NCBI GenBank assembly: GCA_018241505.1
Contig: JAFEDS010000007.1
Location: 62,001 to 126,000, forward strand
Length of the DNA: 64,000 nt
Origin: Pseudomonadota bacterium
GTDB taxonomy: Bacteria > Pseudomonadota > Gammaproteobacteria > Steroidobacterales > Steroidobacteraceae
Direction of reading: 5' to 3'
The position numbers and the translations under genes were made by a program. Within the stretch, counting starts at the first letter, position 1; each line of letters opens with the position of its first letter. The notes under the pieces are model-generated. The model made no database searches, was not told where the DNA came from, and worked only from the letters and a program-made list of their open reading frames with translations. Positions 37,523-54,908 of the stretch are shown here, in pieces.

Positions 37523-38188
37523 GTGCAAGCCACTCCCTTTTTCGCCATTCCCTTCGGCTTCGCGAAGCTCGAACCGGCGCAGGCCCTGAACAACGAGCTG
37601 GCGGACCTGTTCCGCCGGCGCGCGACCGAAGGTGCGCGGTACGCCAATCCACGGCCGCTCACTCAGCGCAACGGCCAGGTGTTCGAGAGCGAATTCCAGA
37701 TGTTCAAGTGGCCGGAACCGTGCGTGCGGCAGTTGAAGGAATTCTGCTGGCACCACCTGATGCAGTTCATCGGCCAACTGAACGGCTATGACAACGCGAC
37801 CCTGGGCCGCATGATGATTTATTCGGATTCGTGGTTTCACATCACGCGGCGCGGCGGCTTCTTCGCCCTGCACAACCATCCGAATGCGTCCTGGTCCGGC
37901 GTTTATTGCGTCGATCCGGGCAAACATGACGCGGATCAGCGTGACAGCGGTTTACTCAGCTTCATGAATCCGGCCGTCGCATCGGCGATGTACATGGATG
38001 CCGCCACGGCCAACCTGCAGGGCGCGTTTGCCTATCACATCCGGCACGTCCGCCTCGAGCCCGGCCAGCTCGTGTTGTTTCCGTCCTGGATCCTGCACGA
38101 CGTCAAGCCGTTCCAGGGTGAAGGCGAGCGCATCACCGTGGCGTTCAATTGTTGGTTTACGATGCAGGATCCGCCGGGGACCCGCTGA
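37523..38188 (+). CDS. putative 2-oxoglutarate/Fe(II) oxygenase, TIGR02466-like (copy 1)
   Basis: This protein has 221 residues from a GTG start (VQATPFFAIPFGFA). It has the TIGR02466-type pattern: WFHITRRGG, then HNHPNASWSGVYCV with probable iron-binding His117 and His119. Near the end, FPSWILHDVKPFQGEGERIT carries a further His192 and Arg203 for 2-oxoglutarate. These proteins are predicted dioxygenases, hydroxylating an unknown substrate. There is no signal peptide, so it acts in the cytosol. The ribosome-binding site is weak. Two relatives lie at 42.5-43.8 kb. Expression must come from read-through of the receptor 4 terminator or from a promoter inside that gene. Confidence 0.8.
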   Translation: MQATPFFAIPFGFAKLEPAQALNNELADLFRRRATEGARYANPRPLTQRNGQVFESEFQMFKWPEPCVRQLKEFCWHHLMQFIGQLNGYDNATLGRMMIYSDSWFHITRRGGFFALHNHPNASWSGVYCVDPGKHDADQRDSGLLSFMNPAVASAMYMDAATANLQGAFAYHIRHVRLEPGQLVLFPSWILHDVKPFQGEGERITVAFNCWFTMQDPPGTR

Positions 38189-38230
38189 CGGCGGACCCGG
38201 GCTCCGCGCGGCCAGTGCCGCGCTGATAAA

Positions 38231-38752
38231 CTATCGTAGCCGGCTGACTTTCGAGCCTCGGCCGCTGGGGGGCAGCATCCAGAAGGATCCCAGCATCGCC
38301 CGTGAGATGGTGACGGAGTCGCCCACCTGCACGCCCAGGTCGGCGTTTCCCAGTTGTTGCCAACGCTGACCGTTGTCGAGCTCCATGACGAGCGCGCCAT
38401 TGGGCCGGTGATGAGTGGCCGTCACAGTGGCCTTGACCGACTTGACCTCTTCGACAATCTCCCGTTTGACGGGGGGCAGGCCAAAATCGCGCTTCGCCGC
38501 GCCAGTGTCCGCCACCGGTGTTCGAGGTACCGCAGCCGCCGCCGGCGCGCTTGCCGGGGCAGCGGTGGCCGGGGCCCCGGTTGCTGCCGCGGGTGGCGGT
38601 TGGGACCGCAACCCCCGCGCCACTCCGTCATAACATGACAGGCGCGCGGCGTCGGCCGGCACAGCGGCGCAGGCGAGAATCCGGGAAGTTGAATTGTCGG
38701 CGCCATGGGCGACTGCAACAGCGGCCCAAAGGCTCAAAATCAGGAATCGCAT
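38231..38752 (-). CDS. small secreted Cys-containing protein (copy A)
   Basis: This 173-residue protein starts with a signal peptide MRFLILSLWAAVAVAHGA. It has a two-Cys motif ILACAAVPADAARLSCYDGV, a Pro/Ala-rich linker (residues about 50-85) and a C-terminal beta domain with MELDNGQRWQQLG and GDSVTISRAMLGSFWML. The same plan occurs in the protein at 48.9-49.6 kb (ARCRAISGAGQRLACYD, LVLDNGQTWRLIE, GDTVTIKRAALGSYLL). Both copies lie directly downstream of a TPR-beta-hydroxylase gene. The function is unknown. It is the third gene of a minus-strand unit, 8 bp after the hydroxylase gene. Confidence 0.7.
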   Translation of the reverse strand: MRFLILSLWAAVAVAHGADNSTSRILACAAVPADAARLSCYDGVARGLRSQPPPAAATGAPATAAPASAPAAAAVPRTPVADTGAAKRDFGLPPVKREIVEEVKSVKATVTATHHRPNGALVMELDNGQRWQQLGNADLGVQVGDSVTISRAMLGSFWMLPPSGRGSKVSRLR

Positions 38753-38760
38753 ATCGATAC

Positions 38761-40059
38761 TCAGTGCTGAATCTGCCAGGGATTGACGCCGCCGTAAAAC
38801 TCTTCAACCCCCACCGCCGTCTCGGTCACCAACTTGCGCTCCGCTTCGGTCAGATACGGATTCCAGACATCGAAAATCAGAATGGCGCGCGGTGCATCGC
38901 TCTCATTCCACGCCTCGTGCTCCACGGTGTCATCAAACACCCAGGCTTCACCGGCCTGCCACTGCCTGCGATCGCCGCCCACCCGGAATGTGCATTTGCC
39001 CGGCAGTAGCAGCGGCAGGTGCACGGTCAGGCGGGTGTTGGTCGCACCATTGTGCGGCGGAATGTGACTTTTTGCGTCGAGAATTGAAAAGAACGCCGTG
39101 GGCCCGTGTCCGCTGATTTCGATACGAGGCACCTTGGCAAGCGCCGCGACCGTCGCCGGACAACGCGCCTGGTGCTCGGCAAATGCCTTGCCTTCGCGCC
39201 AGAGATAGAAAGCACTCCAGCGGCGCGAGTGATTCAACTCTTTCCACTGATCAATGGGCACGCCCTCCGGAAAGGCTACGTAAGGCACGAGGCTGTCCTG
39301 GTCTTGGGCAAACACCCGCTCAAACTCCGCGCGAATCGCCGGCGCGGCCGCTTCCAACTCCGCGAGCCACGGAAATTCGCTCCGCGGATAGAACCCATAG
39401 GCCGGCAGATAGGGGAAATACATGAACGTGGGCTGCGGCAGAAACGGGCGCCGCCGGCCGAGAAGGATTTCGAGGCAGTGATCAAAGCGCATCTCATCGG
39501 CCAGGCCTGAGCGCGTCGGGCCGAGCCTGTCGCGCAGAAATGCCGTGAGCGCTTCGCCGTTCTCGCGCACGCAGTTGACTGCAAGCTGGATGGCCGGTTT
39601 CAGGCTGGGTGGCAGATTCGCGCGCGGCGCAATCGAGGCCAGGGCTGCCTGATACGCCGCCGCCGCCGAACGGGTCCGGCCGAGCCGATTCAACAGAGAG
39701 CCCTTCTGCAGCAGGGCGGGCAGAAACCGCGGCTCAATCGCCAGCGCTTTCTCCAGCGAGACCATTTCGTCATCGGCCAGTCCGAGCTGGCTCTGCGCGG
39801 CACTCAAATTGACCCAGAAGGCGGGATTGGTGGCATCGAGGGCCACCGCCGCCTGCAGGACTTCCTGAGCAGCCTGGCTGTTGCCCCGATGGATGTAGCG
39901 CTGACCGAGGGCGTTCAGAACCAGGGGATGGCGCGGCGCCATGGATTCGAGGCGCGCCAGGAGCTGGTCCGCCTTGGCGGTCTCACCGCTGTTGAAGGCA
40001 CTCTCGAACTGCTGAACCCACGCACGTACCTGTGTGTCGTCGACTGGAATTGCACTCAT
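38761..40059 (-). CDS. TPR-aspartyl/asparaginyl beta-hydroxylase (copy A)
   Basis: I start the protein at MSAIPVDDTQ, giving 432 residues; the longer frame runs into the protease gene. Residues about 10-145 form TPR repeats (ALGQRYIHRGNSQAAQEVL, AYQAAL). Residues 320-410 form the PF05118-type hydroxylase domain with HIPPHNGATNTRLTVHLPL (His336), the FDDTVEHEAWN motif (His381) and Arg391 for 2-oxoglutarate. This follows the two-His iron site of the aspartyl beta-hydroxylase family. The enzyme would hydroxylate Asp or Asn in a protein or peptide, with the TPRs binding it. It sits 10 bp after the aspartyl protease gene and 8 bp before the secreted-protein gene. Confidence 0.88.
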   Translation of the reverse strand: MSAIPVDDTQVRAWVQQFESAFNSGETAKADQLLARLESMAPRHPLVLNALGQRYIHRGNSQAAQEVLQAAVALDATNPAFWVNLSAAQSQLGLADDEMVSLEKALAIEPRFLPALLQKGSLLNRLGRTRSAAAAYQAALASIAPRANLPPSLKPAIQLAVNCVRENGEALTAFLRDRLGPTRSGLADEMRFDHCLEILLGRRRPFLPQPTFMYFPYLPAYGFYPRSEFPWLAELEAAAPAIRAEFERVFAQDQDSLVPYVAFPEGVPIDQWKELNHSRRWSAFYLWREGKAFAEHQARCPATVAALAKVPRIEISGHGPTAFFSILDAKSHIPPHNGATNTRLTVHLPLLLPGKCTFRVGGDRRQWQAGEAWVFDDTVEHEAWNESDAPRAILIFDVWNPYLTEAERKLVTETAVGVEEFYGGVNPWQIQH

Positions 40060-40069
40060 GGTGCGTATT

Positions 40070-41002: not shown

Positions 41003-41099
41003 CGAGCGGCCCCCTTTGTCCGTGTCATCGTATTGGATACGCGCGCCGGCCGCCGTGCTATAGGTCGGGTGGCGAGTCCAAAGTTGCCTGGGGTGGACC

Positions 41100-42542
41100 T
41101 TGACGAACGGCCTGGATCGAATGGTTCTGGAGGCGCAAGCGCTGCAGCGCCAAGGGCGCGTTCCCGAAGCCATTCAGGCCTATCAGAAGGCCCTCGGGGA
41201 GCGGCCTGATCGGGCCGATTGCTGGTACAACCTCGGCGTATTGCTGCGTCAACAGCGCCAGCTTCCGGAGGCGCTCGCCGCGTACCAGCGAGCATTGGAC
41301 TACGGGATTTCGGCGCCCGAGGAAGTGCACCTGAACCGGGCGGTCATCTACTCCGACTATCTGCGGCAGGACTCGGCCGCGGAGCAGGAGCTGACGCAGG
41401 CGCTGCAGAACAACCCGAACTACATTCCGGCGCTGCTCAATCTAGCCAACCTGCACGAAGACCGGGGCGGGCGTTCGGAAGCCGGTGCGTTGTATGGGCG
41501 AGTACTGACGCTGAATCCGCGTTGCTTCGAGGCCCTGGCGCGCTTCGCAAATCTGCAACCGGCTGCGAGCGCCGACAACCGCTTGATCGTGGAAATTGAG
41601 GAGGCGCTGCAAGCCCCCGCCGCCGCGGCCGAGCAAGCGAGTCTACTGTTTGCTCTGGGCCGCCTGCGAGATGGCAAAGGGCAATACGCAGCAGCGTTCG
41701 AGGCGTACACGGCAGCAAATGCGCGCAGCCGCGCGAGCGCGGCTCCCGGCACCGCCACTTACAACCGCAAGCGGCAGGAGGATCTGGTCGACCAGTTGAT
41801 TCTGCGTTACCCGGCTGGAGCCGTCGCAGCGGCTGGCGGGTTGGAGGCCGCCGGCACGCAGCCGCAGCCGATTTTCATCTGCGGTATGTTTCGTTCGGGG
41901 TCGACGCTCGCCGAACAATTGCTGGCGAGACACCCGCAGCTCGCGGCGGGCGGTGAGTTGGATATTCTGCCGCGACTCGCTGCGACCGCGGCGCCCGCCT
42001 CGTCCCTCGCCGCAACCTACCGGGCGCAGTTGCGGCGGATGTTTCCCGGCGCGGCCTATGTAACCGACAAGCGCCCCGACAACTTCCTGCACATCGGTTT
42101 CATCAAGAGCCTGTTTCCTGACGCACCGATCGTGCACACGAGCCGCGACCCGCTCGACAATTGTCTGTCGATCTTCTTCCTGCACCTGGACCACAGCATG
42201 GCCTACGCGCTCAATCTATTGGATATCGGTCACTATTTCCGCCAGTACCGCCGCCTCATGGCACACTGGCAGCGCTGCTATCCCCACGATCTGTTTGAGC
42301 TCAACTACGATACCTTCGTCCACCAACCGGCCCGGCAGGCGGCCCGGCTGTTCGGGTTTCTCGGCCTCGATTGGGATGATCGCTACCTGGAGCCCGAATC
42401 GCGCGGCCGCGCCGTGAAGACCGCCAGTGTCTGGCAGGTGCGTGAGCCGATCTATACCCGCTCGTCGGGACGAGCGGCACACTACCGCGATCAGTTGGGT
42501 GAGTTACGCGCGCTGCTGTCCGATCTGCTGCCGACATCATGA
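41100..42542 (+). CDS. TPR-sulfotransferase (copy 1)
   Basis: The protein has 480 residues from a TTG start with GGGGTGG upstream; an ATG seven codons later is possible. Residues 5-150 are TPR repeats (CWYNLGVLLRQQRQLPEALA). The sulfotransferase domain shows the 5'-phosphosulfate loop IFICGMFRSGSTLAEQLLA (about 258-276), ITDKRPDNF-type TDKRPDNFLHIGFI, and the 3'-phosphate segment VHTSRDPLDNCLS. It would use PAPS to sulfate a hydroxyl, possibly on a protein. Its stop overlaps the next gene as ATGA, and it heads a three-gene unit with two oxygenase-like genes. It is divergent from the protease-hydroxylase unit. Confidence 0.88.
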   Translation: MTNGLDRMVLEAQALQRQGRVPEAIQAYQKALGERPDRADCWYNLGVLLRQQRQLPEALAAYQRALDYGISAPEEVHLNRAVIYSDYLRQDSAAEQELTQALQNNPNYIPALLNLANLHEDRGGRSEAGALYGRVLTLNPRCFEALARFANLQPAASADNRLIVEIEEALQAPAAAAEQASLLFALGRLRDGKGQYAAAFEAYTAANARSRASAAPGTATYNRKRQEDLVDQLILRYPAGAVAAAGGLEAAGTQPQPIFICGMFRSGSTLAEQLLARHPQLAAGGELDILPRLAATAAPASSLAATYRAQLRRMFPGAAYVTDKRPDNFLHIGFIKSLFPDAPIVHTSRDPLDNCLSIFFLHLDHSMAYALNLLDIGHYFRQYRRLMAHWQRCYPHDLFELNYDTFVHQPARQAARLFGFLGLDWDDRYLEPESRGRAVKTASVWQVREPIYTRSSGRAAHYRDQLGELRALLSDLLPTS

Positions 42543-43204
42543 GTCAGGGCTCAATATCCATCGTACCCATCTTCGCCACACCCTTGGCGATAGTGACGGT
42601 GCCGGCGGCGCCACAAACCAACGAGCGGGTGGCGCAATTGTTTGCGCAGCATGTGACGGCGAATCCCGCGCCGCCGGGAGCGGCCCGGCTGAGTTACCAA
42701 AGCGCTGATGACCTCCTCGATTGGACTGATGAGCCGGTGCGGCAACTTTGCGGCGAAATTCTGCGCGGTGTGTGGTCAACCGCAGCCGCGGTTACCACAC
42801 TGACCGCGGAGCAACTCAAATCGCTATCGATGCAGGCGCGGGCCGCTTTCACGATCGTACAACCCAACGGCTGCGTGCCCGCGACCAGCCACTCCCTGAC
42901 AGCGTGGTGCGGAATCTATTGTCTCCAGGCTCCAACGCCGGCGCCTCAACGAGGCGATAGCGGGGTCGTACGGTTCTACGAATCGCGGTTCGGAGCCATG
43001 CTGTCCGATGCCACCAGCAGTGCGATGCGCGTCCCTTTCACGTCCGGTCACTACACATGGCGTGCCACTCCAGGGCAGCTAATAGTCTTCCCGGGCTCGC
43101 TCAGCCATGAAATTCCGCTGATCCGGTCGGATACTCCATTGGTCTTTATTGCGGTGCGCACGCGTTTTGTGGGTCCCGGCCAGGAAGGACTATCGCGATG
43201 GTGA
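42539..43204 (+). CDS. divergent 2OG/Fe(II) oxygenase-like protein (copy 2, active-site altered)
   Basis: This 221-residue protein has the fold pattern of its neighbours (IVPIFATPLAIVTV at the N-terminus, AWCGIYCLQA, LIVFPGSLSHEIP), but key positions differ. The HNHP iron motif is TSHSLTAW, so the first His is lost, and the RIT segment holding the 2-oxoglutarate Arg reads TPLVFIAV. It may be inactive, a structural partner, or use different ligands. It overlaps the sulfotransferase gene by four bases and the following oxygenase gene by seven, so all three are co-translated. Confidence 0.6.
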   Translation: MSQGSISIVPIFATPLAIVTVPAAPQTNERVAQLFAQHVTANPAPPGAARLSYQSADDLLDWTDEPVRQLCGEILRGVWSTAAAVTTLTAEQLKSLSMQARAAFTIVQPNGCVPATSHSLTAWCGIYCLQAPTPAPQRGDSGVVRFYESRFGAMLSDATSSAMRVPFTSGHYTWRATPGQLIVFPGSLSHEIPLIRSDTPLVFIAVRTRFVGPGQEGLSRW

Positions 43205-43848
43205 GCCCGCCGCTGCAATTGAACGCCGCTTTCGCCGTGCCGATCCTGCAGGCACGTTTGAATCCTTGCGACGCGCTCAATCGCGCTCTCGAGGCGCTGT
43301 TTCTCGCGCGGGAGAGCGAAGAGTACCGCAACCCAACACCCAGCCACATCCCCCAGGCGGAGACGTTTGAGAGCCGCTTCAACCTGTTTCGCTGGCCCGA
43401 GCCGTGTATACAGGAGCTGCGGCGGTTCGTGCTCGATCGGGTGGCCGCCGCCGTGCTGCAGGCCAGCAATCTCACGCCCGAGGCGCTGGCGCGGCTCAGG
43501 TTCAACAATCACACCTGGTTCCACATAACACGGTACGCCGGCTCGTTCGTGGCCCATAACCATCCCCTGGCCTCCTGGTCCGCGGTCTACTGCGTTCGTC
43601 CCGGGGAGTCCGTGCCGGAGCACCCGCAAAGCGGCCTGCTGCGATTTTTTGACCCGCGACAAGGCGCCAACGCCTACCTGGACCCCGCAAACGAGCATCT
43701 GCACCCCCCGTTTGCGTTGCGATCACTGGATTTTCGGCTGGCGGCGGGCGACCTGGTGGTCTTTCCCTCCTACCTCTTCCATGAAGTCACGCCCTTCTAC
43801 GGCGGGGACACGCGGATCACCGTCGCGACCAATTGTTGGTTCGCCTGA
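43198..43848 (+). CDS. putative 2-oxoglutarate/Fe(II) oxygenase, TIGR02466-like (copy 3)
   Basis: This 216-residue protein is a full paralogue of copy 1. It has WFHITRYAGSFVAHNHPLAS with both His of the HNH motif, an AVYCVRPGESVPEHPQSGLL segment, LVVFPSYLFHEVTPF and GGDTRITVATNCWF with the 2-oxoglutarate Arg. It has no signal peptide. The start overlaps the end of copy 2 by seven bases. The downstream 286-bp gap before receptor 5 shows no clear terminator. Confidence 0.82.
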   Translation: MVSPPLQLNAAFAVPILQARLNPCDALNRALEALFLARESEEYRNPTPSHIPQAETFESRFNLFRWPEPCIQELRRFVLDRVAAAVLQASNLTPEALARLRFNNHTWFHITRYAGSFVAHNHPLASWSAVYCVRPGESVPEHPQSGLLRFFDPRQGANAYLDPANEHLHPPFALRSLDFRLAAGDLVVFPSYLFHEVTPFYGGDTRITVATNCWFA

Positions 43849-44040
43849 GGCGCCCGGTCAGGGGTGGTTGCTGTTGTACCACCGCGACACAAAACCGAGC
43901 CTGATTTAACAAACGTCCGCAGACAAGCTACCCGTTGGGACGAACAGGTTAACGCCCGGGACAAATCCCGGAGAATTGGGGACAGTTGCAATAGTTTCAT
44001 GCTTCAGCAAACTTTGCAATGTTAGGTCTCCGGCGTAGTA

Positions 44041-44083
44041 TTTCCGCCATAAGAGGGGGGTTTCCGCCACATAGGAGCGGGGG
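44041..44083 (+). repeat. direct repeat in the leader of receptor 5
   Basis: TTTCCGCCATAAGAGGGGG (44041-44059) is followed by TTTCCGCCACATAGGAGCGG (44061-44080), a degenerate direct repeat about 20 bp long. Upstream, a GCAAACTTTGC palindrome lies at 44007-44017 and two TTGCAA copies at 43986 and 44014. These could be binding sites. No -10/-35 pair was convincing, and the 286-bp gap shows no gene. Confidence 0.4.
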
Positions 44084-44134
44084 TGCTCGCCTTCCGTTTT
44101 GTCTCAACGGCTACAAAATTGGGGAGTTCAACGA

Positions 44135-47100: not shown

Positions 47101-47209
47101 CGGCACCCTGTCCGACTGCCCGAACACGAGCTGCAACGACAACACCTGGGTGGGTACCTACGACTCGCTCGGTCGTTACCTCTATGCACACGTGACCATG
47201 AAGTTCTAA
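44135..47209 (+). CDS. TonB-dependent receptor 5
   Basis: This 1024-residue receptor begins MTNRSRNVRQAVQFALAACA, with a signal peptide ending AFGA. It then has [17 protein letters not shown] as TonB box and plug start, IRTEDVLQNLPSISAE, LTGGASAVYGADAVAGVV and a barrel ending HVTMKF. It is a more distant member of the array's family: the plug, the IVNPAAQINTQVGGNIALKP region and Cys pairs (DCALTGDAALC, DCAGYWGTTCG) correspond. GGGGAG lies 11 bases upstream of the ATG. It is followed by a terminator and a TPR-sulfotransferase gene. Substrate unknown. Confidence 0.93.
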   Translation: MTNRSRNVRQAVQFALAACASAAAPLAFGADAAAPANPDAVQEVVVTGSRIAQSPNDVSISPITSVSAVDIQQTGLIRTEDVLQNLPSISAESPSGNSISSVGINTVSLRGLGSQRTLVLIDGRRMNPGGAGGVTGPGGSSNAADLNQIPADLIERVDVLTGGASAVYGADAVAGVVNFVLNTHYQGVRVDADYSFNNHKNDNETYLGYLRAANQPIPQDTVNTGQNRNVSILAGANFADGKGNATTYFTYTNSLPAVGYQFDHAACTLNAGKTPTSAIFCGGSSTSGPGRFFLLGKLNVGLPSQTTTAVVDNTVDPKTGAFRAYNGNTDSYNYGALSYFQRSQERYTAGGFLHYDINDYASVYTETMYARNTSTAQYGPSGAFAFTAYPLQKDNPLLTPEQVATIFTPANVAANHAVFGGTDPNQVTMYLGRRNVEGGGRLDQYQSSSIRQLIGVKGSFADAWNYDTYAQVGITQFQDIEGNFLGVPQINAALDVIPNPTAANGGIPGVAAGTAVCRSALPGGANPTCVPWNIYKPGGVTPDQLKYLSVPATYASNATEYIWDGSVTGDLGKYGVKLPTAKDGLSINVGAEYREEKFKFDPDFIFANGLQAGGAPSQAIDGRLHVWEGFTEVRLPIMNDLPFAYSLSADAGYRFSNYTLGGTTNTYKFGVEWAPIPDVRLRGGYNRAVRAPNLDELFEPPVVGAGGTADPCWGPNPVLSQAQCERTGVTQAQYGHIVVNPAAQINTQVGGNIALKPEIADTYTFGVVLQPQFIPNLVASFDAYYIKIRNTITSLSSNTIINDCALTGDAALCGLIHRGPTGSLWFNTANFVTATNENIGKISARGLDVSSHYHMDVGNLGKLSFNLTGTYTKDFNTQPLPTGGSYDCAGYWGTTCGAPLPHWRHVLNTTWGLPWFGIDLTARWRLVGPSKVDRSSSNPQLNAAYYVSTAHIPGYNYIDVSASMPVTSWIDFRMGVNNIADKNPPLILNGTLSDCPNTSCNDNTWVGTYDSLGRYLYAHVTMKF

Positions 47210-47287: not shown

Positions 47288-48916
47288 ATGCCACGCGATC
47301 TCAAAGCCGACCAGGCCATGCTCCGCGAAGTCCTGTCCCTCGCGCAGAAGCGGGATTTCGGACGGGCCGGCGCGATCGCCAACCAAGCGTTGGCAGATGG
47401 CTTCGAACACCCGCTGTTACTGAACGTGGCGGCCACTTGCCTGGAACAGGAGGGAAAGTTAGCGGACGCATTGCGACTGCTGGAGCGCGCTGTCGAGCTC
47501 GCGCCCGAAGATATCGGCGCACGCAATGCGCTGGGGCTGTGTCTCCAACGCCTGGAGCGGCCCGCCGAGGCTCTGCGTCATACAGACGTTCTGTTGAAAC
47601 AGAATCCGGGCTTGGGGTTCGCGCACGCCAACAGGGGCAATGCGCTGATTGCCCTGGGGCATCTCGGCCGCGCGCGAAGCAGTCATTTGCGTGCCCTGGA
47701 GCTGGAACCCGGTAACGTCAGCTCGCTGGCTTCCCTGGCATCGATTGCAAGCCATCGTGGCAACCACGATGAGGCCCGCACCTGGGCACGGCAAGTCCTC
47801 GCGGTAGTGCCGAACTTTCCAGATGCCGTCATCGCCCTGGCGGCCGCAGAGCTCGCGGGTGGCACGCTCGCTGAAGCGGAAGCGCTGTTACGCCAGCTCC
47901 TTGCGGATCAACGCGTGTCCCCAATCGACAAGGCACGGGCCAACGGACTGCTGGGCGATGTGCTGGACGCGGACAGGCGTTACACCGAAGCGTTGGCTGC
48001 ATATTCGGCCTGTAACGAAGCCTTACGGCGGATCCACAACCGATTCGCCTCCGGAACCAGCCTCACCACCTACACCAACCAACTGCTTACCACAGTCGGG
48101 AGTGACGTGGACCGATATGCACGCCGAGGCGGCGAGTCGCAGGCACCTGTTACCGCCGCGCGCGGGCACGTGTTCTTGATCGGCTTTCCGCGTTCAGGGA
48201 CGACGCTGCTCGAGGTTGTTCTCGACGGACACCCACAGGTGGCGAGCCTCGACGAGCACGAGCTGCTCACAGAAAGTGTTCAGCGATACATGGCCGATCC
48301 GCGCGATCTGTCCGATCTCGAGAAGGCCAACGAAACACAATTGCGCCCGCTGCGTGAAGCTTATTGGAACCGCGTACGCGAGAACGAGATTGACGTATCC
48401 GGCAAAGTCTTCGTTGACAAGTACCCGATGAGCACACTGAAGTTGCCGTTGATTGCGCGTTTGTTTCCCGACGCGCGCATCCTTTTTGCCGCTCGGGACC
48501 CGCGCGAGGTGGTGCTTGCCTGCTTTCGGCGGCGCTTCAAAATGAATCCGGCCACGTACGAGTTTCTGACGACCGCCGGCGCGGCCGCTTTGTACGACGC
48601 AGTCATGCCCTTCGCGGAGTTGATGCGGCCGGTATTCGGCGCCCGCTGGCGGGACGTGCGGTATGAGAGCCTCGTCGCCGATTTCACGGGCCAGATGCGT
48701 GCGATCTGCGAATTCCTCGGCCTGGAGTGGCTCGAAGGCATGGACGATTTTGCGGTTCGCGCCCGTGAACGGGAGCGCAGCACGCCCAGCACGGCCCAAC
48801 TTGCACGGGGTCTGGATCGCTCGCGCACCGTGCACTGGAAGCATTACAGCTCGGCGCTCGAGCCAGTGATGCCCGTGCTCAACAAATGGGTTGAGCGCCT
48901 CGGGTACTCGCGCTAA
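47288..48916 (+). CDS. TPR-sulfotransferase (copy 2)
   Basis: This 542-residue protein has long N-terminal TPR repeats (residues about 40-260, with VAATCLEQEGKLADALRLLE). The sulfotransferase domain has FLIGFPRSGTTLLEVVLDGH (about 296-315), the 3'-phosphate segment LFAARDPREVVLACFRRRF (about 395-415) and VFVDKYPMST. It would transfer sulfate from PAPS in the cytosol. It lies 17 bp after the receptor 5 terminator, so expression is probably read-through from receptor 5. Downstream, the converging minus-strand secreted-protein gene starts within 40 bp. Confidence 0.87.
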   Translation: MPRDLKADQAMLREVLSLAQKRDFGRAGAIANQALADGFEHPLLLNVAATCLEQEGKLADALRLLERAVELAPEDIGARNALGLCLQRLERPAEALRHTDVLLKQNPGLGFAHANRGNALIALGHLGRARSSHLRALELEPGNVSSLASLASIASHRGNHDEARTWARQVLAVVPNFPDAVIALAAAELAGGTLAEAEALLRQLLADQRVSPIDKARANGLLGDVLDADRRYTEALAAYSACNEALRRIHNRFASGTSLTTYTNQLLTTVGSDVDRYARRGGESQAPVTAARGHVFLIGFPRSGTTLLEVVLDGHPQVASLDEHELLTESVQRYMADPRDLSDLEKANETQLRPLREAYWNRVRENEIDVSGKVFVDKYPMSTLKLPLIARLFPDARILFAARDPREVVLACFRRRFKMNPATYEFLTTAGAAALYDAVMPFAELMRPVFGARWRDVRYESLVADFTGQMRAICEFLGLEWLEGMDDFAVRARERERSTPSTAQLARGLDRSRTVHWKHYSSALEPVMPVLNKWVERLGYSR

Positions 48917-48955
48917 CGCCTCACCTGGCCGGGCGCTCAACTGCCAACGTCGTGC

Positions 48956-49609
48956 TCAGTTGGTGCGCTCAACGCGGTAGCTTCTGCGACTGGGCGTCAC
49001 CAACAGATAGGAGCCCAAGGCAGCTCGCTTGATGGTCACGGTGTCGCCCGGCCGCACTCTGGGATCGGACTCAATGAGGCGCCAGGTCTGCCCGTTGTCG
49101 AGTACCAGGTCGACATTGTTGAGGCGATCTTGCGTCATCCGCGAGACCACGGACTTCACCTGGCCGGGCCCAGTAGGAGTCGCCCTCAGTTGATGGAGCG
49201 AGAATCCAAAGTTGGCGGGGTCATCCACATCGGTCGAACGGCGGGCCGCTGCAGTCGTACCGGCCGCTTGCCCTTCCGGGGTGGTGGCAGCAGCTACTGC
49301 AGGTTCCGCAGCGCTCGCGCCTGTAGCTGCCGCAGTTCCCGCAGGCGCCTGGGCCGACTGCGCCCCGCTCGCCGCAGTCCGGGATGGCGCGCTGTCGGTT
49401 GGCGTTGCGGGAGCGTTTTGCGCTCCCGCAACGGCACGCGCTTCGAGGTCGTCGTAACAAGCAAGCCGCTGGCCTGCACCCGAGATCGCGCGACAACGGG
49501 CCAGATCGCTCACATCCACCGTCCGCTGCTCGGCAAGCGCCGCGCAAGTCAGTCCGGCAAGAACGAATGTCAGAGCGGCACGCGTCATTCCAACAAACAG
49601 CGGATTCAT
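48956..49609 (-). CDS. small secreted Cys-containing protein (copy B)
   Basis: This 217-residue protein is a paralogue of the one at 38.2-38.8 kb. It has a signal peptide, the two-Cys motif LARCRAISGAGQRLACYD, a long Ala/Thr/Ser-rich linker (residues about 60-130) and the terminal domain with VLDNGQTWRLIESDPRVR and GDTVTIKRAALGSYLLV. The gene overlaps the end of the TPR-hydroxylase gene as ATGA, so the two are co-translated. The same pair occurs at copy A, which suggests that they work together. Function unknown. Confidence 0.7.
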   Translation of the reverse strand: MNPLFVGMTRAALTFVLAGLTCAALAEQRTVDVSDLARCRAISGAGQRLACYDDLEARAVAGAQNAPATPTDSAPSRTAASGAQSAQAPAGTAAATGASAAEPAVAAATTPEGQAAGTTAAARRSTDVDDPANFGFSLHQLRATPTGPGQVKSVVSRMTQDRLNNVDLVLDNGQTWRLIESDPRVRPGDTVTIKRAALGSYLLVTPSRRSYRVERTN

Positions 49610-50916
49610 GCGTGGCTCTCGGGGGGCAAAGCGTAGTGGCGCACGTAGTGCTCCGTAGCGATCTGGACCATGTCGCGTTCAGCGGGCGTCAATAGAGGAT
49701 TCCAGATGTCGAAAATCATGATCGCCCGCGGCGTGTCCGAGTTGTTCCACGCCTCGTGCTCGATCGTGTCATCGAAGACCCATGCCTTTCCCGGCACCCA
49801 TTCACGCGTCGTAGCGCCCACGCGGAATGCGCAACCCTCCGGAATGATCAGCGGAAGATGTACGGTCAGGCGCGTGTTGGTGACGCCAGTATGCGGAGGA
49901 ATCTTCGTCTTCGGCTCGAGGATCGAAAAGAAGGCCGTGGGCGCGCGCGACTCAATGGTGGGCCGAGGCACTGCCTCCAGAGCTTTCGCGGTTGCGGGGC
50001 AACGCGCCAGGTGGCCTGAATTCGGCGTGCCCTGGTTCCACAGGAAATACGCACTCCAGCGGCGTGAGCGGTTCAGATCCCGCCACTGATCGAGCGGCAT
50101 GCTGGCGGGAAAGTCGATGTACGGCTGAAGACCCTCGCGGTCGGCGACCAACACACGCAGCAGCTCGGCACGGATCTCATCACTCACCGCCTCGAGCGCG
50201 TCGAGCCACGGGAAATCGGCGCGTTCGAAAAACTCGATTGCGGGCAACTCGGGAAAGTACATCCACGTGGGTTGCGAGTAATAGGTCTTGCGCTTACCCA
50301 TCAGCGTGTCGAGGCACATGTCCAGGCGCCGCTGTTGTTTGCCACCGTACCGGTCCCGGACGGCGGCCAGCGGCTGCTCGAGTGTAGCGGTGAGAGCCGC
50401 CAGATCCGCATCGACCACCGCCCTGGCATGGTTGAGCGCATCACGTATTGGCGCAGGTGGCTCGGCGCCCGGAGGAAAGCACGCCAGGGCATTCTGGTAG
50501 GTGCGCGCCGCGGTACGAACGTCACCGGACTGCTCGAACCAGGCGCCTTTTTGCAGCAGCGCCGACAGATGGCGCGGTTCCAGCTCCAGTGCCTTTTCGA
50601 GGGCATTGAACTCATCGGTGCGACGGCCCAGCACATTCAAACTGTTCGCCAGATTGGCCCACAGCGCCGGATGCCTGGGATCGCCGGCCGTGGCCCGCGC
50701 AAACAGCTCGTACGCCTGTTCCGCCGCGCCACGGTTCATCATCCGCACACCGAGCTCGTTCAGAACGGCAGGGTGCTGCGGGGCCTGCGTCGCCAGGCGT
50801 GCCAGCAGCTTGTCTGATTCGGCCATCCGCCCCGCGGCTGCCTCGGCTTTGGAAGCCTGCAGTGCGCGGATGATGGCCGCATCGTCCAAGGGTGCGGATG
50901 CTGCGCTATTCACCAC
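49606..50916 (-). CDS. TPR-aspartyl/asparaginyl beta-hydroxylase (copy B)
   Basis: I start the protein at a GTG because CAGGAG lies five to eight bases before it; a frame extending to an ATG at 50940 is possible. TPR repeats occupy the N-terminal half (AVLNELGVRMMNRGAAEQAY, AFEQSGDVRTAARTYQNAL-type segments). The hydroxylase domain has IPPHTGVTNTRLTVHLPLI, VFDDTIEHEAWN and an Arg in TPRAIMIFDIWNP, matching copy A residue for residue at the iron and cosubstrate positions. It is divergent from TPR-sulfotransferase copy 3. Confidence 0.88.
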   Translation of the reverse strand: MVNSAASAPLDDAAIIRALQASKAEAAAGRMAESDKLLARLATQAPQHPAVLNELGVRMMNRGAAEQAYELFARATAGDPRHPALWANLANSLNVLGRRTDEFNALEKALELEPRHLSALLQKGAWFEQSGDVRTAARTYQNALACFPPGAEPPAPIRDALNHARAVVDADLAALTATLEQPLAAVRDRYGGKQQRRLDMCLDTLMGKRKTYYSQPTWMYFPELPAIEFFERADFPWLDALEAVSDEIRAELLRVLVADREGLQPYIDFPASMPLDQWRDLNRSRRWSAYFLWNQGTPNSGHLARCPATAKALEAVPRPTIESRAPTAFFSILEPKTKIPPHTGVTNTRLTVHLPLIIPEGCAFRVGATTREWVPGKAWVFDDTIEHEAWNNSDTPRAIMIFDIWNPLLTPAERDMVQIATEHYVRHYALPPESHA

Positions 50917-50992
50917 GAAATCTCCTGGAAAATAGGGCATTGTACGCGGAAAGACCGGGCCCGAGTTGACGTCCTGCCCCTGGAGCTGCGAT

Positions 50993-53005
50993 TTGACTGA
51001 GACTAGAAGCGCCGAACTCGCACTGATGCGCGCATCGCTGTTGCTCGATTCGGATCCGGCCGCCGCAGCCCGCGCCGCCGGCGAAATCCTGGCCGGCCAT
51101 CCGGGTCATCCCGAGGCCAGCTTGCTGTTGGCATCCGCGAGCCGGCGGCTCGGTCAATCAAAAGAGGCGGTTGCCGTGCTGGAGTCGCTCGCCGAGGCGC
51201 ATCGTGACTCCGCATTCATGCAACTCGAGCTCGGTCGGGCCTACGCCGCAAGCCGGCGCACAACGGCCGCGATCGCGGCATTCCGCCAGGCTGTTGCGCT
51301 CGATCAAGGGCTGGCGGACGCCTGGCACGAGCTGGCGGCACAGCTATTTGTCACCGGGGACACTCGTGGTGGTGACACGGCCTACGGCCACTACTTCCGC
51401 TTGGCACCGCGCCCTCCAGAGCTCACTGACGCGGCGGTAGCATTGGCTGAGAACAGGCTCGAAACCGCGGAAGCGCTGTTGAAGCAGCGGCTCCGGAAGG
51501 CACCCCACGACGTGATCGCCCTGCGCATGCTCGGGGAAATTGCCACTCTCCAGGAGAACCTTGCGGAAGCGGAGTCGCGCCTCACAACCTGTCTCGCTCT
51601 CGCCCCCGGGTATGCGCAAGCTCGCTACGATCTGGCGAACCTGCTGCACCTGCAGAACCGCGATACAGAGGTGTTGCCCCTGATCGAGCGGTTGCTCGCA
51701 GCCGAACCTGACAACATCGACTACGTCAGCCTGCAGGCGCACGCCATGCGCCTCCTCGGACGCATCACCGAGGCAATTGCTCTGATGGATCAGGCGGTGG
51801 CCACTCATCCGAATGAAGAGCGCGCGTGGCTGTTATATGGCCATTTGCTGCGCGAGGTCGGGCAACAGCCCCGCGCCATCGAGATTTATCGCCACGTCAT
51901 CGAGATACGCCCCCAGTACGGGAACGCGTACTCCGCGCTGGCGAATCTCAAGACTTACCGATTCAGTCCGGAGCAGGTCACGGACATGCGGGTCCAACTG
52001 TCCCACGCAGGTCTGCGGCACGGCGAGCGCACCCATTTCGAATTTGCGCTGGGCAAAGCTCTGGAGGATGAGGGACGGTTCGAAGAGTCTTTCAAACACT
52101 ATGCGAGCGGCAACTCGTTGCAGCGTTCAGTCGTTCCGCATGATGCGCAAGCAGTCACTTCAGATGCCAAGCTGGTTAGGACGCTGTTCACCCGTGAGTT
52201 CTTCGCTGAACGCTCCGGATGGGGAAGCGCGAGCGTGGAACCGATATTCATTGTGGGCCTGCCCCGCTCCGGCTCCACATTGCTCGAACAGATATTGGCC
52301 ACCCATTCGCAGGTGGAGGGAACGCGGGAGTTGGTATACATCCCGGCGCTCGCCTTTGAAACGATGACGCGGCCAAATCAGACCACATCCAGACCGTACC
52401 CGGAGTCGCTGGCCACGCTGGAACGAACGGACTTCGACGCACTCGGCGCGCGCTATCTCTCGCGTGCTTCGGTGTTGCGCGGGCTCGCACGCCCGCGATT
52501 CGTCGACAAGATGCTCGGCAATTTCACTCACATCGGGTTCATTCAACTACTGTTTCCAAACGCCTCCATTATCGATACCCGGCGTCACCCGCTCGCGTGC
52601 GGCTTCTCGTGTTACAAGCAGCAGTTTGCCCGCGGTTTTGGCTTTACGTACGACTTATCCGACATGGGCCGCTACTACCGCGACTACGCGAGCTTGATGG
52701 ATCATTTCGATGCCGTCCTGCCAGGACGCATTTATCGCGTTCACTACGAACAGGTCGTTGCCAATCCGGACGGTGAGATCCGGAAGCTGCTCGACTACTG
52801 CGGGCTGCCCTTCGAGGAGCAGTGCCTGGAGTTTCACCGCAATCGGCGGGTAGTGCAGACGATCAGCTCGGAGCAGGTTCGCCGGCCGATTTATACAGAG
52901 AGCGTCGATCAGTGGCGGAACTACGAACCCTGGTTGAATCCGTTGAAAGAGGCGTTGGGTGACCTGGTCGAGCGCTATCCCGAGCCGCGGCACGCGGTCA
53001 AATGA
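50993..53005 (+). CDS. TPR-sulfotransferase (copy 3)
   Basis: The protein has 670 residues from a TTG with GGAG upstream (a frame from 50966 is also open). It contains about ten TPR units (residues about 20-370, for example LALAENRLETAEALLKQRL) and then the sulfotransferase domain. That domain has PIFIVGLPRSGSTLLEQIL, FVDKMLGNFTHIGFIQLLF, IDTRRHPLACGFSCYKQQF and IYRVHYEQVVANPDGEIRKL. It is the largest of the three copies, with the longest TPR array. The TPR-glycosyltransferase gene follows at 10 bp, so the two are probably one unit. Confidence 0.88.
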   Translation: MTETRSAELALMRASLLLDSDPAAAARAAGEILAGHPGHPEASLLLASASRRLGQSKEAVAVLESLAEAHRDSAFMQLELGRAYAASRRTTAAIAAFRQAVALDQGLADAWHELAAQLFVTGDTRGGDTAYGHYFRLAPRPPELTDAAVALAENRLETAEALLKQRLRKAPHDVIALRMLGEIATLQENLAEAESRLTTCLALAPGYAQARYDLANLLHLQNRDTEVLPLIERLLAAEPDNIDYVSLQAHAMRLLGRITEAIALMDQAVATHPNEERAWLLYGHLLREVGQQPRAIEIYRHVIEIRPQYGNAYSALANLKTYRFSPEQVTDMRVQLSHAGLRHGERTHFEFALGKALEDEGRFEESFKHYASGNSLQRSVVPHDAQAVTSDAKLVRTLFTREFFAERSGWGSASVEPIFIVGLPRSGSTLLEQILATHSQVEGTRELVYIPALAFETMTRPNQTTSRPYPESLATLERTDFDALGARYLSRASVLRGLARPRFVDKMLGNFTHIGFIQLLFPNASIIDTRRHPLACGFSCYKQQFARGFGFTYDLSDMGRYYRDYASLMDHFDAVLPGRIYRVHYEQVVANPDGEIRKLLDYCGLPFEEQCLEFHRNRRVVQTISSEQVRRPIYTESVDQWRNYEPWLNPLKEALGDLVERYPEPRHAVK

Positions 53006-53015
53006 CTGAACGTTG

Positions 53016-54908
53016 ATGACCAACACAGCCGCGACACTCACGCAGGCAATCGGCGCCCACCAGAATGGGCGTCTCCAGGAGGCGATGCGGCTCTACCAGC
53101 AGGTGCTGCATGCGGAGCCTCGCAACGTCGATGCCCTGCGACTCATGGGGCTCGCCCTGAGCTCCATCGGCCGCCAAGCGGAAGCCATTGCCTGCTACGA
53201 CCGCGCGCTGGCGATTCAGCCGAGCCTGGCCATCGCGCATCGCGGCCGCGGGATGGCACTGATGCAGCTCGGCAAGGCGCAGGAGGCCCTCGCCAGCTTC
53301 AACACGGCGGTTCGACTCGCGCCCAATGACGAAGTGTCGCTCAACAGCATGGGAGTCATCCTGCTGTCGCTGGGGCAGGCGGCGATGGCGCTGGCCAGTT
53401 TCGACCGCGCGCTCGCGCTGCAGCCGAACGACCCCACCGCGAGCCACAACCGCGGACTCGCTCTCATGAGCCTGGCACGCTACGACGAAGCGCGGCAGAG
53501 TTTCGAGCGGACCTTGCAACTCGCGCCGGGCTCGGTACCCACACTGATGTGGCGCGGCAAGTGTTACCTGGAGATGGGACGCCCGGCGGAGGCACTGGCC
53601 AGCCTGCAGCAGGCCTGTACGCTCGCTCCAGGAGATTTCGCAGCGAACTTCCAACTCGGTATCACCCTCGCACGCTTGAATCGCAAGGACGAAGCGGTTG
53701 CCGCTTTCAGCGCCGCCATAGCGGGCAATGCACGCTCGGCGGAAGCTTTCAACAACCGTGGCGCTGTGTTGGTGCGCCAGTTTCGCCCGGCGGACGCGAT
53801 CGCCGATTTCCGGCGCGCCATCGAGCTGAACCCGGGTTACGCGGATGCGTATGTCAATTATGGCAACACCCTCAAAGGACTGGGGCAATATTCAGCGGCA
53901 CTGCAGCAGCTCGACCACGCACTGACACTCAAACCCGGCGACCTCACGGCGCGCTGGAGCAAGGCGCTCATTCAACTCTCACGGGGGAATTTTGCCGAAG
54001 GCTGGCCGCTGTACGAGTCGCGCCTGGAGTTGGAACCCGCGCGCCAATTGCAACGCAATTACAACCGCCCGCGCTGGACGGGCGCCGAGCCGCTGAACGG
54101 ACGGTCGCTGCTGGTCCATGCCGAGCAAGGGCTGGGCGATACATTGCAATTCGCGCGCTACATCCGTCCGCTGGAAGATCTGGGGGCGAGAGTCGTCTTC
54201 GAGGTCCAGCCGGTTCTCATGCAACTGCTGCGATCACTGCCAACACAGGCAACGCTGATCGCCCGGGGCGATCCGGTCCCTGACACGGACTTTCACACGC
54301 CGCTGCTGAGCCTGCCCCTGGCCCTGCAAACACGCCTCGACACGATTCCGGGCGGGGCCCCCTATCTGTCAGTTGACACACAGGCTGAACAAACCTGGCG
54401 CGAGCGGCTCACCGCCTTGCCGGGCCGCAAGATCGGGATCCTGTGGCACGGCAACCCCGAGGCCGAGCAGATATCGGCACTGCAGGCGCGATCCTACCCG
54501 TTGGCCGCGGCCGCGCCGCTGGCTCAACTGTCAGGCGTCACGCTCGTTTCGCTGCAGAAAGGCCCGGGCGCCGAGCAGCGCCGGCAGGTTGATTTCGCGG
54601 ATCGGGTCGTGCAACTCACCGATCCACAACACATGGGCGCGGCCGAGCTCGCCACCGAGACCGCCCCCCTCCTGAAATGTCTCGACCTCGTCATCACCGC
54701 AGACACCGCCCTCGCCCACCTGGCCGGCGCGTTGGGAGTCAGAGTGTGGTTGGTTCTGCAGTCCGTGCCGGACTGGCGTTGGTTGGTGGACCGCAGCGAC
54801 AGCCCCTGGTACCCGTCGATGCGGCTTTTTCGCCAACGGACGGCCGGCAATTGGGTCGAGGTCTTTGAAGATATCGCAGGTGTCATTGCCACGACTCGAG
54901 ACTTCTAA
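53016..54908 (+). CDS. TPR protein with GT9-like glycosyltransferase domain
   Basis: The protein has 630 residues: N-terminal TPR repeats (residues about 1-330, with a unit such as LVRQFRPADAIADFRRAIEL), then a glycosyltransferase-like domain. The HAEQGLGDTLQFARYIRPL segment (GxGD) and DTALAHLAGALGVRVWLVL near the end match the heptosyltransferase-like TPR proteins of bacteria. It would transfer a sugar to an unknown, perhaps TPR-bound protein. The start is the ATG; an in-frame TTG one codon earlier is rejected. It follows the sulfotransferase with a 10-bp gap. The GTTGC/GCAAC inverted repeat at 54918-54935 follows. Confidence 0.82.
   Translation: MTNTAATLTQAIGAHQNGRLQEAMRLYQQVLHAEPRNVDALRLMGLALSSIGRQAEAIACYDRALAIQPSLAIAHRGRGMALMQLGKAQEALASFNTAVRLAPNDEVSLNSMGVILLSLGQAAMALASFDRALALQPNDPTASHNRGLALMSLARYDEARQSFERTLQLAPGSVPTLMWRGKCYLEMGRPAEALASLQQACTLAPGDFAANFQLGITLARLNRKDEAVAAFSAAIAGNARSAEAFNNRGAVLVRQFRPADAIADFRRAIELNPGYADAYVNYGNTLKGLGQYSAALQQLDHALTLKPGDLTARWSKALIQLSRGNFAEGWPLYESRLELEPARQLQRNYNRPRWTGAEPLNGRSLLVHAEQGLGDTLQFARYIRPLEDLGARVVFEVQPVLMQLLRSLPTQATLIARGDPVPDTDFHTPLLSLPLALQTRLDTIPGGAPYLSVDTQAEQTWRERLTALPGRKIGILWHGNPEAEQISALQARSYPLAAAAPLAQLSGVTLVSLQKGPGAEQRRQVDFADRVVQLTDPQHMGAAELATETAPLLKCLDLVITADTALAHLAGALGVRVWLVLQSVPDWRWLVDRSDSPWYPSMRLFRQRTAGNWVEVFEDIAGVIATTRDF

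What the first reader, a model, noticed from the sequence alone, without database searches (positions are those of the whole stretch)
37523..54908. A receptor-linked hydroxylation/sulfation system built twice
On both sides of receptor 5, a minus-strand TPR-beta-hydroxylase with its secreted Cys protein faces a plus-strand TPR-sulfotransferase plus further modifying enzymes (two oxygenase-like genes in one copy, a TPR-glycosyltransferase in the other). Domain assignments come from motifs. The pairing with TonB receptors and the duplication suggest a system that hydroxylates, sulfates and possibly glycosylates a protein or peptide. I know of receptor loci with halogenase and cupin-type genes in other lineages, but not of this combination; that is recollection, not a search.
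Basis: partly seen in the sequence, partly recalled or inferred. Interest (0 to 1): 0.85.

Follow-up and report, generated by a model that had tools for sequence, protein, structure and literature searches.

The report
Receptor loci with protein-modifying enzymes
Next to outer-membrane import receptors this bacterium carries two conserved gene groups whose enzymes look able to hydroxylate and, in one group, also to sulfate and perhaps glycosylate a protein or peptide; what they modify, and why an import receptor needs it, is unknown.

Summary
The genes are real: two TPR-AspH-type hydroxylases (49% identical), two secreted two-Cys proteins, three TPR-sulfotransferases, PF13759 oxygenase-like genes, a TPR protein with a weak glycosyltransferase signal, and TonB receptors (TBDR). 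"Built twice" is a misparse. Relatives split the region into two modules, each with its own receptor. Module A: R4 (of the R1-R4 array), OXYc, CYS-A, ASPH-A; same order in L004 and L005. Module B: SULF-A, OXYb, OXYa, R5, SULF-B, CYS-B, ASPH-B, SULF-C, GT; all nine recur in order and strand in another genome of the genus (39-69% identity). A retropepsin-like protease gene was missed. The co-occurrence asked for exists: a TBDR lies within 2 kb of TPR-AspH in 41 of 62 well-flanked loci, and TBDR density falls about sevenfold beyond 2 kb. The hydroxylase keeps the catalytic residues of human AspH, but the human substrate-carboxylate binders (Gln627, Lys666) are replaced in 97 of 97 sequences, so Asp/Asn is not supported. 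SULF-B and SULF-C are closest to tyrosine sulfotransferases among solved structures. Best analogue: Caulobacter CciT-CciO, a receptor that needs a cytoplasmic dioxygenase. Substrate unknown.

The parts
24377..27376 (+). R1, TonB-dependent receptor (tandem array R1-R4)
   Evidence: Plug + TonB barrel; 87-88% identical to R2-R4
27798..30800 (+). R2, TonB-dependent receptor
30986..33988 (+). R3, TonB-dependent receptor (start uncertain)
34438..37437 (+). R4, TonB-dependent receptor, the receptor of module A
   Evidence: Pfam; R4-OXYc-CYS-ASPH order in L004 and L005
37523..38188 (+). OXYc, intact PF13759 2OG-Fe(II) oxygenase-like, module A
   Evidence: PF13759 2e-20; HNHP, FPSW..H and RIT motifs present
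38231..38752 (-). CYS-A, secreted two-Cys protein, module A
   Evidence: hydrophobic N-terminus; conserved C...RLxCxD and C-terminal domain
38761..40059 (-). ASPH-A, TPR + AspH-type oxygenase, module A
   Evidence: PF05118 2.3e-44; catalytic residues; start chosen by codon score
40070..40993 (-). APROT, retropepsin-like aspartic protease with hydrophobic N-terminus; module membership uncertain
   Evidence: PF13650 2.7e-25; relatives near ASPH in L026, L029, L074, L078, L149, L151
41121..42542 (+). SULF-A, TPR-sulfotransferase, module B
   Evidence: PF13469 4.3e-39; L144 orthologue 55%
42539..43204 (+). OXYb, degenerate PF13759-like paralogue, module B
   Evidence: 22.2 vs 27 bits; Arg position lost in 4 of 4 OXYb examined, Fe-motif His lost in 3 of 4
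43198..43848 (+). OXYa, intact PF13759 oxygenase-like, module B
   Evidence: PF13759 4.7e-15; motifs; L144 66%
44135..47209 (+). R5, TonB-dependent receptor, module B
   Evidence: L144 66%
47288..48916 (+). SULF-B, TPR-sulfotransferase, module B
   Evidence: PF13469 3.3e-34; best PDB match TPST2 1.7e-10
48956..49609 (-). CYS-B, secreted two-Cys protein, module B; overlaps the ASPH-B end by 4 bases
49606..50940 (-). ASPH-B, TPR + AspH-type oxygenase, module B
51026..53005 (+). SULF-C, TPR-sulfotransferase, module B, divergent from ASPH-B
   Evidence: PF13469 5.9e-46; best PDB match a tyrosine sulfotransferase 5.2e-10
53016..54908 (+). GT, TPR protein with weak glycosyltransferase-9 signal, module B
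   Evidence: L144 55%

Best explanation
Two receptor-centred modules, each pairing a TonB-dependent receptor of one subfamily with cytoplasmic polypeptide-modifying enzymes. Shown: the two modules and their conserved order; linkage of TPR-AspH to TonB receptors, mostly of this subfamily, in alpha-, beta- and gammaproteobacteria; a complete AspH catalytic core with a changed substrate pocket; tyrosine-sulfotransferase-like domains in SULF-B and SULF-C; no signal-like N-terminus on hydroxylases, sulfotransferases or GT by a hydropathy window. Inferred: the TPR arrays hold an extended polypeptide, the 2OG oxygenases add a hydroxyl to a side chain (probably not Asp/Asn), and the sulfotransferases and possibly GT modify the same chain. 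The most likely target is an exported protein of the uptake pathway, first the receptor, second the CYS or another periplasmic partner, modified in the cytosol before export and needed for the receptor's function. The cargo is guessed to be peptidic.
For: Module B, all nine genes, same order and strand in L144 (another genome of the genus), 39-69% identity; module A order R4-OXYc-CYS-ASPH in L004 and L005. TBDR within 2 kb of TPR-AspH in 41 of 62 loci with 5 kb on both sides and within 5 kb in 46 of 62; 49 TBDR edges in about 306 kb within 2 kb against 24 in about 1,061 kb at 2-10 kb. Of 50 TBDRs within 2 kb, 44 score >= 900 on the R1-R5-type profile (partly circular). Less selected samples: TBDR in 8 of 17 stretches from 13 genomes and 17 of 20 from the order. 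From the receptor side, 5 of 15 stretches have a TPR-sulfotransferase or TPR-PF13759 frame within 150 bp of an R5-like receptor. Catalytic residues 97 of 97. TPST relatives. Human AspH without its TPR domain does not hydroxylate its protein substrate (PMC6817910, passages). Precedent: CciT strictly requires the cytoplasmic dioxygenase CciO (PMC12004947, abstract and passages).
Against: No usable residue pattern separates enzyme-linked receptors (48, including R1-R5) from nine relatives in eight AspH-lacking genomes; only seven weakly different columns. No TBDR within 5 kb in 16 of 62 well-flanked loci and none in 9 of 17 stretches of the less selected sample. R5-like receptors occur without TPR-AspH in 8 of 14 non-own genomes. 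Ten of 15 PF13469 genes outside the window are not near a TBDR. Co-oriented peptide ABC transporters fit action on an imported peptide equally well. SULF-C also matches the polyketide sulfotransferase CurM (5.4e-9), so a non-protein substrate is not excluded. A paper lists an aspartyl beta-hydroxylase and sulfotransferases beside a lasso-peptide gene. No modification has been observed.
Confidence: 0.38

Rival explanations
1. The enzymes act on the imported cargo. A peptide taken up through the receptor and an Opp-type ABC transporter is hydroxylated, sulfated or glycosylated in the cytosol, for release of bound metal, detoxification or use (as one of the CciO models).
For: SBP_bac_5, permease and OppDF-type ATPase genes on one strand with TBDR and ASPH in L048 and L082, permease and ATPase with TBDR and ASPH in L050, and Opp genes on the strand of the TBDR in L028. 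OppB- and OppC-like families recur in 9 and 10 of 80 loci, in three classes. CciO may oxidise the substrate of CciT (PMC12004947).
Against: No Opp genes noticed beside the window's modules, though no dedicated search of the window was run. TPR arrays on several enzyme classes suit a longer polypeptide, and PAPS-dependent sulfation of a nutrient seems wasteful (both inference).
Confidence: 0.25
2. The enzymes build an exported, modified peptide (such as a lasso peptide or metallophore) that the receptor recaptures: a self-made ligand.
For: The CciT authors propose a self-made ligand. Table 2 of PMC10040529 (passages) lists, with nearly consecutive cluster numbers 1738-1748, lasso B2, sulfotransferase, aspartyl beta-hydroxylase, a second sulfotransferase, PqqD, asparagine synthase and glycosyltransferase in Pontixanthobacter-type genomes; that they are neighbours is my inference.
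Against: In 28 genomes with TPR-AspH, no lasso-B2-type PF13471 match lies within 30 kb of one; the nearest same-contig pair is about 33 kb apart, in G200. No NRPS gene noticed among the window ORFs read (no dedicated search). In the one gap searched (43849-44134, the largest in module B) only short ORFs without support; in L144 the receptor frame opens within 90 bp of OXYa. Other gaps were not searched.
Confidence: 0.18
3. The enzymes modify a surface lipid or polysaccharide and sit near receptors only because receptors are numerous (116 barrel matches in 7.88 Mb).
For: PF05118 includes LpxO and OlsC, and the hydrophobic pocket would suit an acyl chain. Ten of 15 PF13469 genes outside the window are not receptor-linked.
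Against: Far below the curated cut-offs for OlsC (103 vs 450) and LpxO (62 vs 500). Steep distance decay of TBDRs around ASPH. Nine-gene synteny.
Confidence: 0.12
4. Two recent in-place copies of one system flanking receptor 5.
For: Superficially mirrored gene content.
Against: 49% and 34% identity between the hydroxylases and CYS proteins; different groups in the quick tree; each module has its own syntenic relatives and receptor.
Confidence: 0.03

Closest known systems
CciT-CciO / PiuA-PiuC / Fiu-YbiX (TonB receptor plus cytoplasmic 2OG-Fe(II) dioxygenase)
   Same: Co-conserved, adjacent receptor and cytoplasmic 2OG oxygenase without obvious biochemical link. A gene of this dioxygenase family sits in L078 (194 vs cut-off 143 bits), with relatives in L018, L038, L067, L143 and L151.
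   Different: Other receptor subfamily; other oxygenase families (AspH-type with TPR, PF13759); added sulfotransferases and GT; no consensus Fur box found.
Human AspH (aspartate/asparagine beta-hydroxylase)
   Same: TPR + oxygenase architecture, two-His iron site, 2OG residues.
   Different: Substrate-binding Gln627/Lys666 replaced in 97 of 97, Arg688 too; no EGF-like substrate known; bacterial, with no export signal seen.
Tyrosylprotein sulfotransferases TPST1/2 (and bacterial RaxST, by recall)
   Same: Closest solved sequences for SULF-B and SULF-C; aligned Arg, Glu, Lys and Ser conserved in 28-30 of 31.
   Different: N-terminal TPR arrays; no known substrate; no RaxX-like precursor or exporter noticed beside them. 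CurM and a further polyketide sulfotransferase also match, more weakly.
Lasso-peptide-linked AspH/sulfotransferase genes listed for Pontixanthobacter (PMC10040529, Table 2 passages)
   Same: Aspartyl beta-hydroxylase, two sulfotransferases and a glycosyltransferase in one apparent cluster; the table also lists TonB receptors.
   Different: With lasso B2, PqqD and asparagine-synthase genes; no PF13471 (lasso B2 type) match near TPR-AspH in 28 genomes. Sequence relation to this family not tested.
LpxO / OlsC lipid hydroxylases
   Same: Same Pfam family PF05118.
   Different: Below curated cut-offs; TPR domain; receptor context.
Receptor loci with halogenase, SapC and cupin genes
   Same: Modifying enzymes next to TonB receptors (recalled; one search returned no paper, a listing without a relevant title).
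   Different: Other enzyme families.

Membership tests
AspH-type Asp/Asn beta-hydroxylase | PF05118 domain with TPR N-terminus and AspH fold | tested here: met
AspH-type Asp/Asn beta-hydroxylase | Two-His iron site (His679/His725) and 2OG residues Ser668, His690, Arg735 | tested here: met
   97 of 97 sequences; roles from PMC6817910 passages
AspH-type Asp/Asn beta-hydroxylase | Gln627 and Lys666 that bind the substrate Asp carboxylate | tested here: not met
   0 of 97; A/V/T/S/G and F/M/L/V/Y/I instead
AspH-type Asp/Asn beta-hydroxylase | EGF-like substrate with Cys3-4 disulfide | not testable with these tools
   needs a biochemical assay
LpxO / OlsC lipid hydroxylases | NCBIfam equivalog cut-off | tested here: not met
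   OlsC 103 and 102 vs 450 bits, LpxO 62 and 48 vs 500 bits for ASPH-A and -B
Tyrosylprotein sulfotransferase-like | PF13469 domain with conserved 5'-PSB Arg, catalytic Glu, Lys and 3'-PB Ser | tested here: met
   residue roles partly recalled, partly from PMC9774471 passages
Tyrosylprotein sulfotransferase-like | Sulfates tyrosine in a polypeptide | not testable with these tools
   needs an enzyme assay
CciT-CciO type receptor-dioxygenase pair | Adjacent, co-conserved TonB receptor and cytoplasmic 2OG oxygenase | tested here: met
CciT-CciO type receptor-dioxygenase pair | Oxygenase of the PRK05467 (PiuC/YbiX/CciO) family | tested here: not met
   window enzymes are PF05118 and PF13759; OXYa matches PRK05467 at 15.6 vs 143 bits
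CciT-CciO type receptor-dioxygenase pair | Fur regulation | tested here: inconclusive
   no consensus Fur box with up to 3 mismatches in the window
CciT-CciO type receptor-dioxygenase pair | Receptor function needs the oxygenase | not testable with these tools
   genetics needed
RiPP cluster (lasso or other) | Conserved precursor peptide gene | tested here: inconclusive
   one gap searched, only unsupported short ORFs; precursor elsewhere not excluded
RiPP cluster (lasso or other) | Lasso B2 type gene (PF13471) at the locus | tested here: not met
   own genome has 5 PF13471 matches, none on contig C44; none within 30 kb of TPR-AspH in 28 genomes
2OG-Fe(II) oxygenase PF13759 (OXYb) | Intact Fe and 2OG ligand motif | tested here: not met
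   Arg position lost in 4 of 4 OXYb examined; Fe-motif His lost in 3 of 4, L144 keeps both

The most novel reading that the evidence does not exclude
A receptor-dedicated post-translational modification pathway in bacteria: cytosolic TPR-guided enzymes hydroxylate a residue of the TonB receptor (or its periplasmic partner) and then sulfate or glycosylate the chain before export, so that surface loops carry sulfo- and hydroxy-groups that create or tune the ligand site. One reason why TonB receptors keep cytoplasmic dioxygenases as obligate partners would then be maturation of the import machinery rather than cargo chemistry.
Probability: 0.2. Interest if true: 0.92.

Novelty: new variant of a known kind. 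Interest (0 to 1): 0.72.

Why it matters
The J Bacteriol 2025 paper (PMC12004947) showed that a TonB receptor can strictly depend on a cytoplasmic 2OG dioxygenase, but left open why. These modules show the same kind of partnership in a richer form, with several enzyme classes that share TPR substrate-binding arrays. The receptor plus TPR-AspH pair recurs in Sphingomonadales, Caulobacterales, Burkholderiales and Steroidobacteraceae, although the complete nine-gene module was seen only in the window and in one other genome of the genus. The question becomes testable: what is hydroxylated and sulfated, and on which side of the membrane? If the target is the receptor, it would show bacterial outer-membrane proteins matured by hydroxylation and sulfation. 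If it is the cargo, it would show peptide import coupled to tailoring.

Tried and rejected
Recent duplication around R5: rejected. Lipid hydroxylase identity: cut-offs not met. RiPP precursor: none convincing in the one gap searched. Lasso linkage: no PF13471 match within 30 kb of TPR-AspH in 28 genomes. Receptor as substrate, tested by residues conserved only in enzyme-linked receptors: 48 linked (R1-R5 among them) against 9 unlinked gave seven weakly different columns, nothing usable. Fold of CYS-B: mean pLDDT 72, no PDB match at E <= 0.001. The extra family SULF2 (22 loci) looks to my eye like a sulfotransferase P-loop protein, but Pfam and NCBIfam gave nothing for the members tried and the PDB only one chance-level match, so it is not claimed. 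Own-genome enrichment near TBDRs outside the window is modest: PF13469 genes 3, 5 and 5 of 15 within 2, 3.5 and 5 kb (P 0.12, 0.027, 0.07); with PF13759 and PF05118 genes 4, 7 and 7 of 18 (P 0.05, 0.003, 0.015). Genome co-occurrence (R5-like receptor in 6 of 13 genomes with TPR-AspH, 8 of 235 without; Fisher P 1.4e-5, own genome excluded) is not corrected for phylogeny, and only the best three receptor candidates per genome were scored.

Literature: ten searches of an open-access library. No listed title or abstract start that I saw describes receptor modules of this kind, but most listed papers were not opened. Opened: passages of PMC6817910, PMC9774471 and PMC10040529; outline, abstract and passages of PMC12004947.

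Limits: genes in fetched loci were called with my own codon-score script, which missed a centre gene in 10 of 80 loci, so counts use stop-to-stop frames and short distances are between open frames, not proven starts. The receptor profile was trained on hits from the same loci, so '44 of 50 near receptors score >= 900' is partly circular. The tree is the quick version; the careful search did not finish. The 80 loci are the best-scoring of 230 relatives. In the order sample the 20 stretches hold 22 of 39 non-own matches, the stronger ones. By equal contig length L143, L150 and L158 are probably L008, L033 and L064 again, and L099 probably L015, so the samples overlap by four loci. OXYb was examined in four loci only; one search lists further, weaker matches.


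Full report
What is in the window. The window is G000:C44:62001-126000 of a 7.88-Mb, 46-contig assembly. Its closest locus relatives are a Steroidobacteraceae MAG and other gammaproteobacterial or unplaced proteobacterial MAGs. Additions: OXYc at 37523-38188, a retropepsin-like protease at 40070-40993, and a degenerate OXYb. The glycosyltransferase call rests on a sub-threshold Glyco_transf_9 match.

Two modules, not two copies. In L144, from another genome of the same genus, SULF-A, OXYb, OXYa, R5, SULF-B, CYS-B, ASPH-B, SULF-C and GT follow one another in the same order and strands as in the window; identities are 55, 42, 66, 66, 59, 39, 69, 56 and 55%, each frame matching its own window counterpart best. 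L143 (probably the same contig as L008) keeps SULF-A, OXYb, OXYa, a receptor equally close to R4 and R5, CYS, ASPH-B and SULF-C; L145 keeps most of them rearranged. In L005 and L004 the order ASPH-A, CYS-A, OXYc, receptor is the reverse complement of R4, OXYc, CYS-A, ASPH-A in the window (ASPH-A 53-55%, OXYc 59-60%, CYS-A 37%, receptor best matching R4 at 47-52%). The quick tree of 96 hydroxylases agrees: window B groups with L007 (74% identity), L006, L008, L011 and L012 (support 100), window A with L004 and L005 (support 92, below the starred level). Whether the modules share an old ancestor is open.

Is the receptor linkage more than chance? From 80 loci (best-scoring of 230 relatives), 62 have 5 kb or more on both sides of the hydroxylase; a TonB receptor lies within 2 kb in 41 of 62 and within 5 kb in 46 of 62. 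Receptor edges per 100 kb fall from 29.3, 6.5 and 13.9 (0-0.5, 0.5-1, 1-2 kb) to 2.1, 3.3, 2.3 and 1.2 (2-4, 4-6, 6-8, 8-10 kb), an internal control for receptor-rich genomes. Less selected samples: 14 of 249 Pseudomonadota genomes have the hydroxylase; the 17 non-own matches from 13 genomes have a receptor in the fetched stretch in 8 of 17. In the order, 31 of 147 genomes have it; 17 of 20 fetched stretches hold a receptor, at 0-4.7 kb. From the receptor side, of 15 fetched R5-like receptors, 5 have a TPR-sulfotransferase or TPR-PF13759 frame within 150 bp (L121, L122, L123, L127, L128) and a sixth within 2 kb (L125). Against exclusivity: 16 of 62 loci lack a receptor within 5 kb; orphan genes sit beside what look by eye like nagZ/scpAB or ribosomal genes; and 10 of 15 PF13469 genes elsewhere in this genome are not within 5 kb of a receptor.

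Mechanism. Three enzyme classes in these loci carry TPR arrays in the window and a fourth, PF13759, does so beside R5-like receptors in L122, L123, L127 and L128, which points to a shared kind of polypeptide substrate. Oxygenases that create a hydroxyl, followed by transferases that can cap one, is a coherent order of events; this is inference. The closest tested precedent is CciT-CciO: the receptor's function strictly requires a cytoplasmic 2OG dioxygenase, the receptor protein is still made without it, and the substrate is unknown (PMC12004947). A gene of that dioxygenase family, over its curated cut-off, occurs in the TPR-AspH locus L078 and relatives in others. I favour modification of an exported protein of the uptake route (0.38) over modification of imported cargo (0.25), a self-made ligand (0.18) and lipid or polysaccharide substrates (0.12). 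The cargo question is informed by oligopeptide ABC transporters co-oriented with receptor plus hydroxylase in a Nevskiaceae, a Sphingomonas and a Burkholderiales genome (L048, L082, L050), and by ExbB/ExbD genes in Burkholderiales-type loci (TonB by eye). The self-made-ligand rival gained from PMC10040529, whose Table 2 lists an aspartyl beta-hydroxylase, two sulfotransferases and a glycosyltransferase with nearly consecutive numbers beside lasso B2, PqqD and asparagine-synthase genes (neighbourhood inferred). Against it, PF13471 lies nowhere within 30 kb of TPR-AspH in 28 genomes.

Degenerate partner. OXYb sits beside an intact OXYa in the four loci examined (window, L144, L143/L008, L145). 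The Arg position is lost in 4 of 4, and at least one His of the Fe motif in 3 of 4; L144 keeps both His. It may be a regulatory or structural partner; no test was possible.

Verdict. A real, conserved, receptor-centred set of enzymes, wrongly parsed as a duplication and with an over-specific chemistry (Asp/Asn). It is a new variant of the receptor-plus-cytoplasmic-oxygenase kind, with sulfotransferases and further enzymes added; the substrate remains the open question.

Noticed in passing
window 24377-37437: Four tandem TonB receptors 87-90% identical to each other, 46-47% to R5; possibly a paralogue array of module A.
   Followed up: partly
window 40070-40993 and 22873-23685: Two retropepsin-like aspartic protease genes (PF13650) on the minus strand, one beside ASPH-A and one upstream of R1; relatives near ASPH in L026, L029, L074, L078, L149 and L151.
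   Followed up: partly
window 42539-43204; L144:6566-7522; L145:15515-16168; L143:5778-7946: A fast-evolving degenerate oxygenase paralogue kept next to an intact one.
   Followed up: partly
L024, L028, L032, L038, L039, L045, L046, L053, L055, L057, L063, L078: Twelve loci that hold one TPR-AspH from each of two deep clades, as if two hydroxylases work as a pair.
   Followed up: partly
L048, L050, L082, L028: Oligopeptide ABC transporter genes co-oriented with the receptor (with TPR-AspH too in the first three).
   Followed up: partly
L017, L023, L025, L027, L065, L071: A peptidase S49 (SppA-like) gene near the TPR-AspH/CYS genes in Caulobacterales-type loci (Pfam checked in L017 and L023).
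   Followed up: partly
L036, L052, L072 and others (22 loci): SULF2, a conserved family of about 350 residues near TPR-AspH, in sphingomonads often between receptor and hydroxylase; no Pfam match for the members tried.
   Followed up: partly
L085 (own genome C8:370000-389900), 8671-14941: Another cluster with a TPR-sulfotransferase, a different type of TonB receptor, a small cupin-like gene (by eye) and a PF13759 gene.
   Followed up: partly
own genome C1:569059-576429: Two lasso-B2-type PF13471 matches about 2 and 6 kb from a TonB receptor barrel match; not linked to this window.
   Followed up: no
window 55120-62590: Two further TonB receptors (R6, R7) around an amidase gene (PF01425).
   Followed up: no
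window 9512-20758: Genes that by eye look like a glycogen/maltodextrin metabolism cluster; SpoVR-like gene at the right edge (63080-64000).
   Followed up: no
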